This document shows, piece by piece, positions 19,354-63,744 of a stretch of DNA of 64,000 nucleotides; the stretch's first letter is position 1; every line of letters begins with the position of its first letter. The translations under genes and the position numbers were made by a program. The notes beneath the pieces are model-generated. The model was given only the letters and a program-made list of their open reading frames with translations. It did no database searches and was not told the DNA's origin. Origin of the DNA: Bacteroidota bacterium (GTDB lineage: Bacteria > Bacteroidota > Bacteroidia > 2-12-FULL-35-15); the NCBI GenBank assembly GCA_947479085.1, contig CANJYB010000021.1, forward strand, positions 1-64,000, read 5' to 3'.

Positions 19354-19406
19354 TTTGTCCGCGATATGGCGGACAATGTTTGGTTTGCGGACAAATTGCG
19401 GACAAA
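19354..19406. promoter_or_regulatory. Four-copy operator-like repeat in a divergent spacer
   Basis: TTTGTCCGC (19354-19362, inverted) and three direct GCGGACAA copies at 19369, 19387 and 19398, the last two extended to GCGGACAAA. The first two copies form a dyad with a 6-base centre. GC-rich words in AT-rich DNA between two divergent genes look like sites for a shared regulator. Confidence 0.55.
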
Positions 19407-19440
19407 ACTTATTTCATACTCTTATATATTTATATCCGAA

Positions 19441-19832
19441 ATGAATGAAGGACAATTTTTAAGAGATAAGCTAAAGGAAGCCCAAAAGAAAATAACATTT
19501 GATAAAAATGTGTTTTGGGGAAACATTGGTGCGGGCCATACTAAAGGATACCAGTTGTGTCATCTGGAAACTCTTCCTGAACCTTACAGGTCGAACGTTC
19601 AAAAACATTTTAAAGTTAAATTCACTGACCTCAAAGAGAGAAAAACCCGGAATTTGCTGAAAGCAAAAAGGACATAACGATAAGAAAACAGCAAAACAAA
19701 ATAAGGGATTTAAAAAACACGGTAACAAGTAAGGAAATAGAAATAAAAATACTGGAGGATGAGTTGATTCTTTACAGAAGCCTGAACGAAAATAAAACTG
19801 TAAAAAGTAAAAAGAAAAAAAACGACAAGTAG
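19441..19832 (+). pseudogene. Small Lys-rich coiled-coil protein gene, apparently frameshifted
   Basis: From ATG 19441 the first frame gives 78 residues ('MNEGQFLRDKLKEAQKKI ...') and stops at 19675-19677. The -1 frame, entered near the A5 run at 19641-19645, continues without a stop to TAG 19830-19832 and encodes a clean coiled coil ('RKQQNKIRDLKNTVTSKEIE', 'IKILEDELILYRSLNENK') with a lysine tail. Joined, the protein would be about 130 residues, with a compact N-terminal domain possibly of helix-turn-helix type (weak) and a C-terminal coiled coil. The break could be a real mutation, a sequencing error in the homopolymer, or recoding. I prefer the first two because the site is not a good slippery heptamer. 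Confidence 0.5.
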
Positions 19833-19908
19833 CGATGCATATCATTGGCATCCGGTTAAGTTAAAACCCGAAAACTCATCATCCGATTAAACAAAATGAT
19901 TAAAACAT

Positions 19909-20118
19909 TGAAAATAACCTGTATGGCAGGCAACAGTTGGTTAGCCAAATGTTACCTGATAAACCAATCAGGTGGCATTTGGGCAACAAAATGCTACCTG
20001 ATTGGTTTGGCAGGCAGTACTTTGTTGCCCCAAAGTAAGCTGACCAGATAGTCAGGTGTTACTTTACCTGCCAGGTGTTACCTGCAGGGGTTGGCAGGTA
20101 ACATTTTAGCAAAAATAA
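19909..20118. repeat. Array 1: 42-bp-period repeat (5 units of two 21-bp halves)
   Basis: A-halves start at 19909, 19951, 19993, 20035 and 20077. Four begin G[TC][TA]A[CG]CTG-like (GTTACCTG, GCTACCTG, GTAAGCTG, GTTACCTG) and all end in CAG. B-halves start at 19930, 19972, 20014, 20056 and 20098 (GTGGCATTTG, GCAGTACTTT, GTGTTACTTT, GTAACATTTT). Spacing is exactly 21 throughout. Neighbouring halves also pair: GGGCAACAAA (19981-19990) with TTTGTTGCCC (20021-20030), and TTACCTGCCA with TGGCAGGTAA (about 20064-20101). It lies in the gene-free stretch 19833-20213 upstream of the gene at 20214. Confidence 0.85.
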
Positions 20119-20213
20119 CAAGCCTGCCAATGTAGTAAACAGGCATTTTGAAACAAAAGAATTACTCAACTTTATAAATATCAATACATTAATCTTAAAA
20201 ACAAGTTAAAACC

Positions 20214-21140
20214 ATGTCAGCAGAATCATTTCAAACTCCAAAAAGCAATCGCACACGCCTGATAGGGCTAAATGGTGCAAAAACTAAAAATGACGCCCTT
20301 GGTTCGGGCAGTTACCTGAGCACGGCTACCAAAGGCAAGTTAAACACCAATCAGCCGCTTTATAAAGGCAAAATGAACTTGCGGGCCATAGCCAGCAGCG
20401 ATTCGCAATTGGCTACTGCTACCAGCAATGCCTCTAGCACGCTGCTTCGCAGAAAATGTTCCCGGTTTATCCAGGTATTTGGCCTGGGAGTGGACGATGG
20501 AGCTTTTTTACGCTCCGATTTTGCAAAGTATCAGTTGGAAAGTAATGGCAACCTGCCCGATATGGGCACTGATGCCGAACTGGTAACTGTGGCTGATAAC
20601 CTAGTGACAGGGGAAGCTGCCCGGATAGCGGCAGGGCAACCTGCTATGAGCAACCCTGATATTACAGAGGTAAGCAACCTGCTCACCATACTTAACACCA
20701 ACCTGACAGCTGAAAATACGGCTAAAGATGCATTGAAAACTGCTGAGCGCAATGTTAACGACCTGAACGAAGTGGTGGACGACACGCTGAGGTTTGTAGC
20801 CAAAGAAGTGGAAGCCAAGTTCAGCGACCGCAGCCCGTCAGAAAGACGCGATGAAGGCAGGTTATGGGGCTTCAGGTATGCGCGAGTGGGAAGTACTAAA
20901 AGGGTTACCGGAACGGTGCGAGATAGCGTAACGGGTGATGTAATTATAGGAGCGGATGTGTTTTTTGAAAACGGAATAAACGATGCTACCACCACTGCCA
21001 TCGGTTATGAACTAAACACCTCGCTTATGGGCGACCAGGTAATAAAAGCCGCTCATGTGCTTTACCTGCCTTATTCAAGCACTGTTACACTTGTTGAAAA
21101 TACCAACCCGGTGGTGGATATTGTGATGGTGAGGATTTAG
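20214..21140 (+). CDS. Uncharacterised protein with C-terminal carboxypeptidase-regulatory-like domain (paralogue A)
   Basis: 308 residues, no signal peptide. The N-terminal two thirds are mostly helical: 'SNRTRLIGLNGAKTKNDALG', 'LLRRKCSRFIQVFGLG', 'NGNLPDMGTDAELVTVADNL', then an Ala/Glu/Asn-rich helix pair about residues 145-210. 'DEGRLWGFRYARVG' leads into a beta-sandwich-like C-terminus, 'VTGTVRDSVTGDVIIGADVF', the pattern of the CarboxypepD_reg-like fold. A paralogue is encoded at 50405-51334 with the same motif order. Both genes are directly preceded by a 42-bp array. Function unknown; lack of a signal peptide suggests a cytoplasmic or non-classically exported protein. Confidence 0.8.
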   Translation: MSAESFQTPKSNRTRLIGLNGAKTKNDALGSGSYLSTATKGKLNTNQPLYKGKMNLRAIASSDSQLATATSNASSTLLRRKCSRFIQVFGLGVDDGAFLRSDFAKYQLESNGNLPDMGTDAELVTVADNLVTGEAARIAAGQPAMSNPDITEVSNLLTILNTNLTAENTAKDALKTAERNVNDLNEVVDDTLRFVAKEVEAKFSDRSPSERRDEGRLWGFRYARVGSTKRVTGTVRDSVTGDVIIGADVFFENGINDATTTAIGYELNTSLMGDQVIKAAHVLYLPYSSTVTLVENTNPVVDIVMVRI

Positions 21141-25844: not shown

Positions 25845-26012
25845 TAGTTGATTGCTTCCACTCAATAGAATGTCGTCCGCATTAAATAGCATGTCGTCCA
25901 CATTAAATAGAATGTCATTTCCATCAGATAGAATGTCACTTCCACTCATTAGATCGGTAATTCCTCTCAATCGATTAACAGAATCAGAGAATAGTTTGGC
26001 AAAAACATCAAA
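25845..26012. repeat. Array 2: eight 21-bp units
   Basis: Units start at 25845, 25866, 25887, 25908, 25929, 25950, 25971 and 25992, exactly 21 bp apart; seven of eight begin TAG. The best-matching pair read TAGAATGTCGTCCGCATTAA and TAGCATGTCGTCCACATTAA. Later units diverge strongly but keep the spacing. It occupies the gene-free stretch 25782-26232. ORFs cross it on both strands (25852-26136 plus, 25794-26033 minus), but neither has a signal, a ribosome site or family likeness. Confidence 0.8.
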
Positions 26013-26232
26013 ACTTTCATCATTTCGTGTCAAAATGTCGGTAGTTTCGCTTTGTTTATCCTCTCTTCCGGCTTTTAGGGGAAATAAAATAAACTTCTTC
26101 CGGATAATATCAATTACCTTGCGGTTCTTTTCTTAAAAAAAACAATTTTCTCATGCAACCATTCATTTATTCCATACATCTCTATAGGTAACAAACCATT
26201 TAATCTATTAATAAACTTTATTATAATAAACT

Positions 26233-37204: not shown

Positions 37205-37419
37205 GTAGGGTGATAACAAACAATATCGCCTTTTTTCTAAAGCGGGATTGTTTTCCGAAACCCTTACTTATTAAATAATAACCACACTAAACACTTCCCC
37301 GCATGTGCGGACACTTTCTATTTCTGCTTATTATACTTGTCCACCGGTTGTTTAAAGCCTGGTAACCGGTTTCTTAAAAGCCTGTTTAATTTAAAATAGT
37401 ACGTTTTTGCTCCTTTTCA

Positions 37420-37651
37420 GTTCAAGAAGCAAACACAAACGTTCAAGAACGAAACTTAAACGTTTGAGATTGCTTCTTAAACGTTCGTGATTGCTTCACG
37501 AACGTTCGAGTTTGCTTCTTGAAGGTTTGATATCATGTCATTAAAGTTAAATGGGTGGTCATTTAACTTTAATCACCACTCATTTAAGTTGAATGATGTC
37601 ATCTTGAACGTTTGTGATTGCTTCTTGAACGTTTATGATTGCATCATTAAC
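37420..37651. repeat. Array 3: eleven 21-bp units with internal dyads
   Basis: Units start at 37420 and every 21 bp after, except unit 9 (37588-37609, 22 bp); unit 11 is 37631-37651. Most begin GTT. Many units have 7-bp arms around a 7-bp centre: GTTCGTG / CACGAAC, TTAAATG / CATTTAA, and GTTTGAG / CTTAAAC (one G-T pair). The arms differ from unit to unit yet still pair. No long ORF crosses it in any frame. It lies in the gene-poor stretch 37090-37842; 37205-37419 also holds a CCGCATGTGCGG dyad and two CCGGTT...AAAGCCTG words. Confidence 0.85.
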
Positions 37652-37842
37652 GGAAAACATGGAAATTGGTGTTTTTAACACTCCCTTTACTCCTTACTAT
37701 TTACCTCAAGAACCCGGACTATCGCTAATACGATGTAAAAGTAGAGGGCTAATTTTTGAGAAATGTTAAAATTCTCCTGCAGCGAGAGAAATCCGGGATA
37801 ATTCTTTCGTTTTTAATAAAAATTTTTCTGCTAATTGTTTTT

Positions 37843-48147: not shown

Positions 48148-48213
48148 TGCTTCGGCAGGCTCAGCAACCATGCTTCGGCAGGCTCAGCAAACGTGCTTCG
48201 GCAGGCTCAGCAA
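48148..48213 (+). repeat. Three tandem CTTCGGCAGGCTCAG repeats
   Basis: Copies of TGCTTCGGCAGGCTCAGCAA at 48148-48167, 48171-48190 and 48194-48213, 23 bp apart, directly after the sigma stop. They are followed by AACAAACAAC words (48214-48252). A single copy sits within the T9SS remnant at 22076-22094. Confidence 0.85.
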
Positions 48214-48266
48214 ACGACAAACAAACAACAAACAACAAACAACAAATAACTAAAACAACATCCCCA

Positions 48267-50404: not shown

Positions 50405-51334
50405 TTATGGCCGCCTTACCATTTCTATGTTTATCACCGGGTTTTGGCCTTCCACCAGGGTTACATCCAACTGAAAATCTTCGTAAAGCGGGTGAACTGC
50501 ATTTAGTTGTTGAACATCCATCAGCGAAGTGTTCAATGTATAACCATCCGCATTGCTGTCTGTATCGTTTCTTCCGTTAGTAAAATATATATTTACTCCG
50601 GCAATTTCATCACGGGTAACACTATCTTTTACCGTTCCGCTTACCACTTTAGGACCACCCTCTCGACCGTAAATTACTCCCCACAATCTGGCTTCATCCC
50701 TCATAGTAGGGCGAGGCAGGTTGATAAAATGAGTTTCCACTTCTCCCCAAAACAAAGAAATACAATCATCCACCTGCTGATTAAGCGCATTGCAGTTAAT
50801 CTGAGCTGTTTTTAGAGCCTGTTCAGCATTGTTCTGAGTTGTCATGGCATCTTCGCAATTGGTTTTTGCAGTAGCCACCTCGCTTATAGGCGGCATTGCC
50901 ATTGCTGCTCCGCCATCTGCCACTCGGTCTGCATCGCCCCGGATAAGGGTGGCTGCTACTGACAAAACTTCTGCATCTGTGCTCATGTCGGGCAAATTTC
51001 CTTTTTCATTTACATCATAATACGCAAGCGCTCCCACCGGAAACACCCCTCTTTGCGTAGCAAGAAAAAACACTTGTATAAAATGAGAACACAACTTTCT
51101 TAATATCTCCACCTTTACATCCTTATCGGCAGTAGCTATATAAAATCCTGCTTTTTTAGCATTTACAATGGCCATTAAGTTAAAATAAGCCGGTTGCAAG
51201 GTATTTAATAATGCTGCTGTGGGTGCAGTAATAAAACTGCTCGCTCCCATTGCAGTTTGTTTTTGTTTTCCGGCATCCAAAGCCGCCTTGCGGGTTCGGT
51301 TGCTGTCCGGTTGTTGTTTGTTTTCTGATGCCAT
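50405..51334 (-). CDS. Uncharacterised protein with C-terminal carboxypeptidase-regulatory-like domain (paralogue B)
   Basis: 309 residues, no signal peptide. It shows the same motif order as 20214-21140: 'SNRTRKAALDAGKQKQTAMG', 'LRKLCSHFIQVFFLATQRGV', 'KGNLPDMSTDAEVLSVAATL', 'DEARLWGVIYGREG', then 'VSGTVKDSVTRDEIAGVNIY' at about residue 233, starting the beta-sandwich C-terminus. The middle is helical and Ala/Asn/Gln-rich ('TQNNAEQALKTAQINCNALN'). It has a terminator behind it and Array 4 (51387-51575) in front. Role unknown; presence of two paralogues each behind an array suggests a repeated cassette. Confidence 0.8.
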   Translation of the reverse strand: MASENKQQPDSNRTRKAALDAGKQKQTAMGASSFITAPTAALLNTLQPAYFNLMAIVNAKKAGFYIATADKDVKVEILRKLCSHFIQVFFLATQRGVFPVGALAYYDVNEKGNLPDMSTDAEVLSVAATLIRGDADRVADGGAAMAMPPISEVATAKTNCEDAMTTQNNAEQALKTAQINCNALNQQVDDCISLFWGEVETHFINLPRPTMRDEARLWGVIYGREGGPKVVSGTVKDSVTRDEIAGVNIYFTNGRNDTDSNADGYTLNTSLMDVQQLNAVHPLYEDFQLDVTLVEGQNPVINIEMVRRP

Positions 51335-51386
51335 TGTTAATTGTTTTTAAGTAAATGTATATCTAACGGGTTTTTGAACTACTGAT

Positions 51387-51575
51387 TTTTATCCTTTTTT
51401 CGGGTTAGCTGATTGCCCGGGTATGTTTTTCTTAACCAAACTTGCCCTCGCTGAGTGGCTAACTATAAATTTCTTTCCTTTTATCTTCCTCGCTGAGTGG
51501 CTAACTACAAATTTCTTTACCTTTTTCGACCTCGCTGACTGCCTAAGTACAAATTTCTTTAGAAATATCGAGTTA
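51387..51575. repeat. Array 4: 42-bp-period repeat (4.5 units)
   Basis: A-halves (21 bp) start at 51408, 51450, 51492 and 51534, each GCTGA-; the second and third differ at one base only. B-halves start at 51387 and at 51429, 51471, 51513 and 51555, the last four beginning TTCTT. Spacing is exactly 21 throughout. It lies in the gene-free stretch 51335-51731, whose remaining part (51576-51731) shows no further structure to me, just upstream of paralogue B in the sense of its transcription. Confidence 0.85.
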
Positions 51576-51731
51576 GGCAGTAATGATTTTCAACACTTTA
51601 GCAATTTTACCCCTCCATGGCCCCTTTTTGCCTTTTTGGTTTCAGGGATTAAATTCCCCTCTCTATACAGTAGTATTTTCCGACACGCACTTTTCAGAAC
51701 AAATACAAAACCATCTCCTTTTTCATCTGCT

Positions 51732-52286
51732 TTATCGTTTAATCGGATGGCATATTTCCCCGACAAGGCAAAATTTTTTTGCCAACGGGCAGGTTTTGTG
51801 ATTATAATGATTTCTATGAGGCTTTCGTTTACACTTGTTTTTACTTTGCAGAATGCACAGAATAGGGTCAGGACTTTTTTGTTCTATTTTATGCAAAGCT
51901 CTTTCCGTCACCTGGCGAGCCTTTTTTCGCTGGTACGAAGGGGCATTGTTTTCCCGCTGTTTTTTAGCCGATTTGTTTTTCTGTTCTTTCAGCCGTTTTG
52001 CATAATCCTTATCTCTTGCACATTTTGTTCTTGTAGTTTCATTGCACTGTTTCACTTTCCTGTCGTTCCATTCCGGGTCCATGCTGAATTTTCGTTTATC
52101 GTTCAGCTGTTTGTTCATTACTTCCCGCACTTTGGCTTTTTTTTCTTCCAGCGTACTGTCCATATATAAACAATAAAGGTCCTGCACCACATCATCTGCA
52201 TCCAGCTCGTTTCTGAATTGGGAACTGTTGCACTTTGCTTTTACATACGCTTTCAGTTCATTGTATTCCTGTTGTTCGTTCATCAT
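51732..52286 (-). CDS. Small Lys-rich protein, weakly like sigma region 2
   Basis: 184 residues from the tandem ATG at 52281-52286. The start region 'YNELKAYVKAKCNSSQFRNE', 'LDADDVVQDLYCLYMD' resembles region 2 of ECF sigma factors (the D-D-V-V-Q-D motif), but region 4 is lacking; the rest is Lys/Arg/Asn/Gln-rich and probably disordered, with six cysteines. The match may be chance. The opposite-strand frame 51423-52169 is Phe-rich and likely a shadow. The gene lies upstream of Array 4 and paralogue B, the same position as the gene at 19441 for paralogue A. Confidence 0.5.
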   Translation of the reverse strand: MMNEQQEYNELKAYVKAKCNSSQFRNELDADDVVQDLYCLYMDSTLEEKKAKVREVMNKQLNDKRKFSMDPEWNDRKVKQCNETTRTKCARDKDYAKRLKEQKNKSAKKQRENNAPSYQRKKARQVTERALHKIEQKSPDPILCILQSKNKCKRKPHRNHYNHKTCPLAKKFCLVGEICHPIKR

Positions 52287-63057: not shown

Positions 63058-63200
63058 TCCCTGTAACGGATTTAAATCATGGCTAAAGCCAAATCGTATA
63101 AACCTTTCAATAACCCCAGCATTAATGCTGGGGTTAAAATAGAATATTGTGACGCAGGCTTTAGCCATGACACTCATTAATATTTAATCCGATAAAGGGA
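63058..63200. repeat. Large nested palindrome (AACCCCAGC family, copy 2)
   Basis: Core AACCCCAGCATT / AATGCTGGGGTT (63112-63135). Around it, CATGGCTAAAGCC (63078-63090) pairs with GGCTTTAGCCATG (63157-63169), and TCCCTG...GGATTTAAAT (63058-63078) with ATTTAATCC...AAGGGA (63182-63200). A three-level imperfect cruciform of about 140 bp within the 702-base gene-free stretch 63043-63744. Confidence 0.75.
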
Positions 63201-63246
63201 TAAGTGCAAAATAAAAGGTCAAAAACCCTCAAAACCTTCATTTTCG

Positions 63247-63498
63247 CTTTTTATTTTATAAAAAATGATTTTTATAAAAGGAAAAACACTTTTTAAAAAA
63301 TAAAAAATACTTTTTATAAAATAAATTCTGCTTTTTAAAAAACAAAAAATGCTTTTTATTAAATAATTTCTATTTTTTATAAAAGAAAAAACGTTTTTTT
63401 AAAAAGGAAAAGTACTTTTTATAAAAGAAAAACTATTTTTTATAAAAGGAAAAATGCTTTTTTAAAAATAAAAACTACTTTTTATAAAATAAAAAACG
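63247..63498. repeat. Array 5: twelve 21-bp A/T-rich units
   Basis: Twelve units, each exactly 21 bp, start at 63247, 63268 and on to 63478. They share [CTA]TTTTT in front, an A-rich back, and one G or C near the end. Each unit has a TTTTTATAAAA-type dyad. Units differ at several positions but never in length. No long ORF crosses it. Beyond it, 63499-63744 shows only CTCTTTGCGTCTTTGCGTG (about 63719-63737), resembling the words at 22137. Confidence 0.85.
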
Positions 63499-63744
63499 GA
63501 AATGGAGAAATAAAGTGTGGGTAAGGAAAAAATGTGTGTTTTTGGACAACTAAAAACAACGTAAATTTGTTTGTGAAAACAAATCCGGAGAATAACTTCC
63601 TTCCCTTTTTTATATTTACTTTGTTCCTTAACCGGTTGATTTTGAGTAAAAATTAAGGGCAGTTAGGCTGTTTATATTTCTAAGATAAACCAAATATCTC
63701 CTCAATATTTTCCTTCGCGCTCTTTGCGTCTTTGCGTGACACCC

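What the first reader, a model, noticed from the sequence alone, without database searches (positions are those of the whole stretch)
19441..21140. Repeat-linked cassette: small Lys-rich gene, 42-bp array, 308-aa paralogue
Seen: gene 19441-19832 (coiled-coil, Lys-rich), then Array 1 with an exact 42-bp period (five units, each two 21-bp halves), then the protein at 20214. The same order in the same relative orientation recurs at 52286-50405: a Lys-rich gene, Array 4 with a 42-bp period, and a 309-aa paralogue. The array sequences and the first genes are not alike, but the layout and the period are. This could be an undescribed cassette in which a divergent repeat array (DNA sites or structured RNA) works with the paralogous protein.
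Basis: partly seen in the sequence, partly recalled or inferred. Interest (0 to 1): 0.85.

Follow-up and report, generated by a model that had tools for sequence, protein, structure and literature searches.

The report
Phased repeat arrays upstream of orphan proteins
In a sparse set of Bacteroidota genomes, several families of small unknown proteins are almost always encoded just downstream of a DNA array whose sequence differs at every locus but whose repeat length is a multiple of 21 base pairs (two helix turns), which gives the first protein handle on the unexplained constant-length DNA repeats of bacteria.

Summary
Both 42-bp arrays exist. The 308/309-aa paralogues belong to an undescribed family (A). 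Outside one divergent clade, all 28 intact members with enough upstream DNA (several genera, two classes), plus one pseudogene, have a 42-bp-period array upstream. The 30 members of the divergent clade have none. Arrays of unrelated sequence with period 21n occur about 36 times per Mb in this genome. They also precede at least four more unrelated protein families (B, C/E/J, F, H/I). In carrier genomes 21 of 23 family genes have an upstream 21n array, against 42 of 798 other genes. Families A and C co-occur across genomes, and non-carrier congeners have essentially no arrays. Units are palindromic, strand-symmetric, keep register through thousands of substitutions, and drift with the protein. 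The Lys-rich gene is not a conserved part. Best explanation: each array is a helically phased multi-site DNA platform bound by the product of the gene downstream. Binding is inferred, not shown. Constant-length variable-sequence satellites are known (Subirana and Messeguer); their link to protein families appears new.

The parts
19900..20128 (.). Array 1: about five 42-bp units, alternating inverted half-units 21 bp apart (e.g. AAATGTTACCTGAT/AATCAGGTGGCATTT); noncoding
   Evidence: period; dyad z 8.0; units
20214..21140 (+). Family A protein, 308 aa: helical N-domain (residues 1-222, no known family) plus transthyretin/CarbopepD_reg-like C-domain (about 225-308)
51358..51611 (.). Array 4: 42-bp-period array upstream of the second paralogue
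50405..51334 (-). Family A paralogue, 309 aa, 44% identical to the first
19366..19677 (+). Not a conserved cassette part
51732..52286 (-). 184-aa Lys-rich ORF before array 4; related ORF upstream of only one other member (L028). Not a conserved cassette part
25845..26013 (.). 21-bp-period array of the same general type, not next to a recognised family gene
37385..37681 (.). 21-bp-period dyad array (AACGTTC units), no recognised family gene adjacent
63193..63592 (.). 21/63-bp-period array, no recognised family gene adjacent

Best explanation
The unit is an array-gene cassette. SHOWN: a noncoding array of units 42 bp long (family A) or 21n bp long (other families) lies about 20-600 bp upstream of the gene. 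Its sequence is specific to the locus, its pitch is fixed, its units are mostly palindromic and strand-symmetric, and it is inherited with the gene. INFERRED: the array is read as double-stranded DNA. Dimers of the downstream gene's own product bind the palindromes. The 21/42-bp pitch (two or four helix turns) puts all sites on one face of the helix, so bound dimers can contact each other and form a filament-like complex that controls the cassette (autoregulation) or organises the locus. Each paralogue has its own operator sequence, which drifts together with the protein. The several sequence-unrelated families would then be divergent or convergent versions of one class of array-binding protein.
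For: Association: all 28 intact family A genes outside clade f12 with enough upstream DNA have lag-42 self-identity of at least 0.50 upstream, against at most 0.43 in 30 f12 homologues (p=6e-11). A truncated pseudogene copy keeps its array too. Families B (3/3), C/E/J (10/11, the last at 0.57), H/I (3/4) and F (2/2) also have one. In carriers 21/23 family genes against 42/798 others have an upstream 21n array (odds ratio 189; includes seeds). Pitch goes with the family: A is always 42 with lag-21 at background, C is mostly 21. Dyads: 19 of 29 family A arrays exceed z=3. Register is kept: about 6150 adjacent-unit mismatches against 2 phase shifts in 62 arrays. DNA rather than RNA: mismatches in dyads are G-T 273 against A-C 294, and sense folding is not better than antisense (14/29, p=0.63). 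Stop codons fall in all six frames in 21 of 29 family A arrays. Array similarity tracks protein identity and is lost below about 60%. Flanks are not conserved. Arrays and families co-occur.
Against: No DNA-binding domain is recognisable in any family (structures 62, 116). The families are mutually unrelated by profile comparison, so self-binding would need a hidden common fold or repeated convergence. About half of the 21n arrays lie beside ordinary genes. The f12 homologues work without an array. Ten of 29 family A arrays show weak or no dyad. No binding or expression data exist.
Confidence: 0.38

Rival explanations
1. A shared trans-acting factor, not the adjacent gene product, reads all 21n arrays by pitch (a nucleoid-like filament or silencer) and controls a class of exchangeable small genes; array sequence is free to vary.
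For: Fixed 21n pitch across unrelated array sequences genome-wide; several unrelated gene families share the feature and co-occur in the same few genomes; about half of the arrays stand beside ordinary genes. Subirana and Messeguer proposed a protein polymerising on constant-size repeats (PMC8161180).
Against: Pitch depends on the neighbouring family (A only 42, C mostly 21); dyad sequences are locus-specific and drift with the adjacent protein; no candidate factor was identified.
Confidence: 0.27
2. The arrays are transcribed leaders or small RNAs that act as chains of hairpins (translation control, guide or sponge RNAs).
For: Dyads make strong hairpins (mean z -3.7 against column shuffles); many arrays lie within 20-200 bp of the start codon.
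Against: No strand bias in wobble pairs (273 against 294) or folding energy (14/29, p=0.63); RNA hairpins do not need an exact 42-nt register, yet it is kept; no Rfam match.
Confidence: 0.12
3. The arrays are by-products of a mutational or mobilisation process that makes 21-bp-step duplications where these genes insert, as in a gene-cassette integration system; they have no function of their own.
For: Unrelated sequences with the same step; patchy distribution; arrays beside a pseudogene (L006) and beside degraded sequence (L228); cassettes with unconserved flanks.
Against: Units diverged by 30-50% still keep register almost without indels and keep dyads; arrays are vertically co-inherited with the gene; no integrase or transposase is linked.
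Confidence: 0.13
4. Chance: the two loci share a layout by coincidence.
For: 21n arrays are common in this genome (about 1 per 26 kb).
Against: 28/28 intact family A members outside f12 carry one; odds ratio 189 in carriers.
Confidence: 0.01

Closest known systems
Constant-size, variable-sequence bacterial tandem repeats ('satellites'; Subirana and Messeguer, PMC8161180, PMC6749651)
   Same: Noncoding arrays, several sequence-unrelated arrays per genome, constant unit near 21 nt (two helix turns), no known function; a polymerising protein was suggested there.
   Different: Here most arrays belong to a 21n series (21/42/63/84), family A units are palindromic 42-mers, and arrays are tied to specific protein families and to the genomes that carry them. 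I found no such link in the papers I could read.
Plasmid centromeres (parC/parS arrays) with their centromere-binding proteins
   Same: Tandem phased sites next to the gene of a site-specific binding protein; sites and protein co-diverge (general knowledge).
   Different: No partner NTPase gene is conserved beside the cassettes; many chromosomal copies; no plasmid match; proteins unrelated to known families.
REP/BIME elements with RAYT transposases
   Same: Alternating inverted palindromes in intergenic regions.
   Different: REP sequences are shared genome-wide and tied to a transposase; here each array has its own sequence and no transposase is linked.
Integron gene cassettes (attC sites)
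   Same: Element of conserved structure and variable sequence joined to exchangeable small genes.
   Different: Multi-unit arrays upstream of dispersed single genes; no integrase found in the flanks; no cassette clusters.

Membership tests
Constant-size variable-sequence tandem repeats (array part) | Constant repeat size near 20-23 nt or multiples | tested here: met
   33 of 50 intergenic arrays in 859 kb have period 21n
Constant-size variable-sequence tandem repeats (array part) | Sequences unrelated between arrays of one genome | tested here: met
   23 of 33 arrays have no similar place elsewhere in 859 kb
Constant-size variable-sequence tandem repeats (array part) | Noncoding | tested here: met
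   51 of 62 arrays (21 of 29 in family A) have stops in all six frames
CarbopepD_reg-like (transthyretin-like) domain proteins | CarbopepD_reg domain above curated cut-off | tested here: inconclusive
   C-domain matches below cut-off (19.6-24.8 of 32.2 bits) but the fold matches carboxypeptidase D TTL domain; one member (L043) has another C-terminus, distant members lack it
Known family for the N-domain (Pfam, NCBIfam, PHROGs, PADLOC, PDB fold) | Significant match to residues 1-222 | tested here: not met
Partition (par) systems | NTPase (ParA/ParM/TubZ-like) gene beside the centromere | tested here: not met
   neighbouring genes not conserved among the family A loci; no NTPase cluster
Partition (par) systems | Protein binds the adjacent array | not testable with these tools
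   needs EMSA or ChIP
Integron cassettes | Tyrosine integrase IntI and attC at cassette ends | not tested
   no recurrent integrase cluster in flanks, but no genome-wide search was made
Structured RNA family | Rfam match or strand-specific pair conservation | tested here: not met
   no Rfam match in the window; no strand bias

The most novel reading that the evidence does not exclude
A previously unrecognised chromosomal DNA-protein system: dozens of array-gene cassettes per genome, from at least five sequence-unrelated families of small cytosolic helical-plus-beta-sandwich proteins, each assembling on its own helically phased palindromic array, gained or lost as a set in sparse Bacteroidota lineages, and the functional explanation of constant-length satellites in this phylum.
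Probability: 0.3. Interest if true: 0.92.

Novelty: categorically new. Interest (0 to 1): 0.8.

Why it matters
Constant-length, sequence-unrelated tandem repeats in bacteria are a described puzzle without a function or a protein. Here they are tied to defined protein families, and the pitch goes with the family. The question 'what reads the repeats' becomes directly testable by expressing one protein and offering it its own array, a paralogue's array and a phase-shifted array. Positive results would add a kind of DNA-organising or self-regulating element to bacterial chromosomes. The label 'categorically new' applies to the array-protein cassette; the array class taken alone is known.

Tried and rejected
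The small Lys-rich gene as a component: no conserved homologue. Coding repeats: stops in all frames in most arrays. Structured RNA: no strand bias, no Rfam match. Phage or plasmid origin: no relatives in viral contigs for family A, none in plasmids for family A, none in phages for family C. Known defence system: no PADLOC match beyond a weak coiled-coil-type hit to ZorA. The idea that the f12 (Bacteroidales-like) homologue explains 22-bp arrays there: rejected, because G738 lacks the gene and has such arrays while G429 and G756 have the gene and none in 100 kb. Remote homology between families A, B, C and H by hhalign: not found. A common dyad-centred motif over arrays: only a mild A enrichment at +6.

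Full report
CHECK OF THE OBSERVATION. The window lies in a 4.28-Mb genome (G000, contig C21); the window is 38% GC. Self-matching at lag 42 is 0.53 over 150 bp at 19905-20139 and 0.66 at 51322-51652, against a mean of 0.285 (SD 0.055) for the window. Both arrays are real and have the stated period. The proteins at 20214-21140 and 51334-50405 are paralogues, 44-45% identical. The first small gene as drawn (19441-19832) is not one reading frame: it stops at 19677 and the Lys-rich tail is in another frame.

THE FAMILY AND ITS ARRAYS. The own genome holds five intact copies and one truncated copy, and each has a 42-bp-period array directly upstream. Relatives were fetched from congeners, from other classes of the phylum and from public contigs. 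Outside clade f12, all 28 distinct intact members with enough upstream DNA score at least 0.50 at lag 42 (f12 homologues: at most 0.43; Mann-Whitney p=6e-11), usually with lags 84 and 126 also on top and lag 21 at background. Not counted: L071 (228 bp upstream only), L026 and L029 (169 and 17 bp) and L077 (degenerate start). Thirty f12 homologues have none; in the three examined closely the gene directly follows a polyprenyl-synthetase gene. The core of the family is the helical N-domain (A2); the C-domain varies: transthyretin-like in most, different in L043, missing in the distant members.

A WIDER PHENOMENON. In 859 kb of the own genome, 33 of 50 intergenic arrays have a period that is a multiple of 21 (42, 21, 84, 63, 126), and most are unrelated in sequence. 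Inspection of their neighbours revealed further small unknown proteins: families B, C/E/J, D, F and H/I. Members found by protein similarity have an upstream 21n array in 3/3 (B), 10/11 (C/E/J), 3/4 (H/I) and 2/2 (F). In three carrier genomes 21 of 23 family genes against 42 of 798 other genes have one (odds ratio 189, p=3e-23). Caution: families B to H were first noticed because of array adjacency, so seeds inflate that test; family A was not chosen by screening for arrays across its members and gives the same answer alone. These families match nothing convincing in Pfam, NCBIfam or PADLOC and are unrelated to one another by profile comparison. Models of A and C share an outline: helical N-domain plus beta-sandwich C-domain.

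CO-OCCURRENCE. Two congeners without family A or C (G014, G017; G014 has one weak family B hit) have no 21n array in 400 kb, while carriers have 20-75 per Mb. With matched loci added, congeners without family A give 1 array in 529 kb against 55 in 1352 kb in carriers (p=3e-7), and that one array lies in G019, which carries families B and C. Over 36 congeners all six A carriers also carry C, which occurs in eight (p=1.4e-5). In a sample of 395 genomes of the phylum C occurs in two, both A carriers (p=4e-5; f12 members left out of A).

WHAT THE ARRAY IS. Units contain palindromes that differ from locus to locus (for example TTCTAATATTAGAA, GTTCGCA-TGCGAAC, TCCGGTACACCGGA, CCTTACCAGTTGGTAAGG). 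Nineteen of 29 family A arrays have dyad z of at least 3. Register is kept: about 6150 adjacent-unit mismatches against 2 detectable phase shifts in 62 arrays (trimming by period makes this partly conditional). Mismatched dyad pairs show no G-T over A-C bias (273 against 294, p=0.40), and sense and antisense fold equally well (p=0.63). This points to double-stranded DNA rather than RNA. Arrays of close protein relatives are alike and lose likeness below about 60% protein identity, so array and gene are inherited together while flanks change.

MECHANISM. The best single account is a self-contained cassette in which the product, as a dimer, binds its own phased palindromes and assembles on one face of the DNA. 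Pitch that goes with the protein family, locus-specific palindromes and co-drift favour this over one general reader of all arrays. Sequence-unrelated families and stand-alone arrays favour the general reader. Binding, function and any benefit to the cell are inferred, not shown.

COMPARISON WITH THE KNOWN. Subirana and Messeguer described constant-size (20-23 or 52 nt) but variable-sequence tandem repeats in bacteria, noted that 20-21 nt is two helix turns, and suggested a protein that needs a constant repeat size to polymerise on DNA (PMC8161180). The arrays here fit that class; the protein families, the palindromic 42-mers, the family-dependent pitch and the genome-level co-occurrence do not appear in the papers I could read. 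Their main 2020 paper and preprints were not available to me, so priority is not certain.

LIMITS. Carrier genomes are mostly metagenome-assembled. The array census outside the own genome covers 20-200 kb per genome. Detection thresholds were my own choice and were varied slightly between scripts (0.54-0.58). No expression or binding data exist.

Noticed in passing
L173-L177 (e.g. L176:9638-9850) and L221-L224: Bacteroidales-like genomes (family f12) hold 22-bp-period arrays of alternating palindromes (AACTAGTT and CACGGTG types), independent of the f12 homologue of family A.
   Followed up: partly
L085:16395-16630, L112:2492-2840, L113:12362-12628: A few intergenic arrays have period 41 instead of 42; one of them precedes a family H member (L085:15623-16294).
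   Followed up: no
L006:1501-1912: A truncated family A pseudogene (about 80 residues) runs into a DEAD-box helicase gene but keeps its 42-bp array with the palindrome TTACCAACTGGTAA.
   Followed up: yes
L043:4980-6167: Family A N-domain joined to an unrelated, repeat-rich C-terminus instead of the transthyretin-like domain.
   Followed up: partly
L068-L070, around 500-2980: In f12 genomes a single-copy array-less homologue sits between a polyprenyl synthetase gene (about 324 aa) and a conserved 258-aa gene; its role may be easier to study there.
   Followed up: partly
L228:40-380: In a genome with weak B and C hits (G019), a 42-bp palindromic array (ACACGAGATCTTGTGT) stands before a degraded ORF.
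   Followed up: partly
window 48148-48216: Three copies of a 23-bp unit TGCTTCGGCAGGCTCAGCAAACG, a different repeat type.
   Followed up: no
L079:6883-7272 and L115:1796-2152: Small XRE-type HTH genes lie beside two of the 84-bp-period arrays.
   Followed up: no
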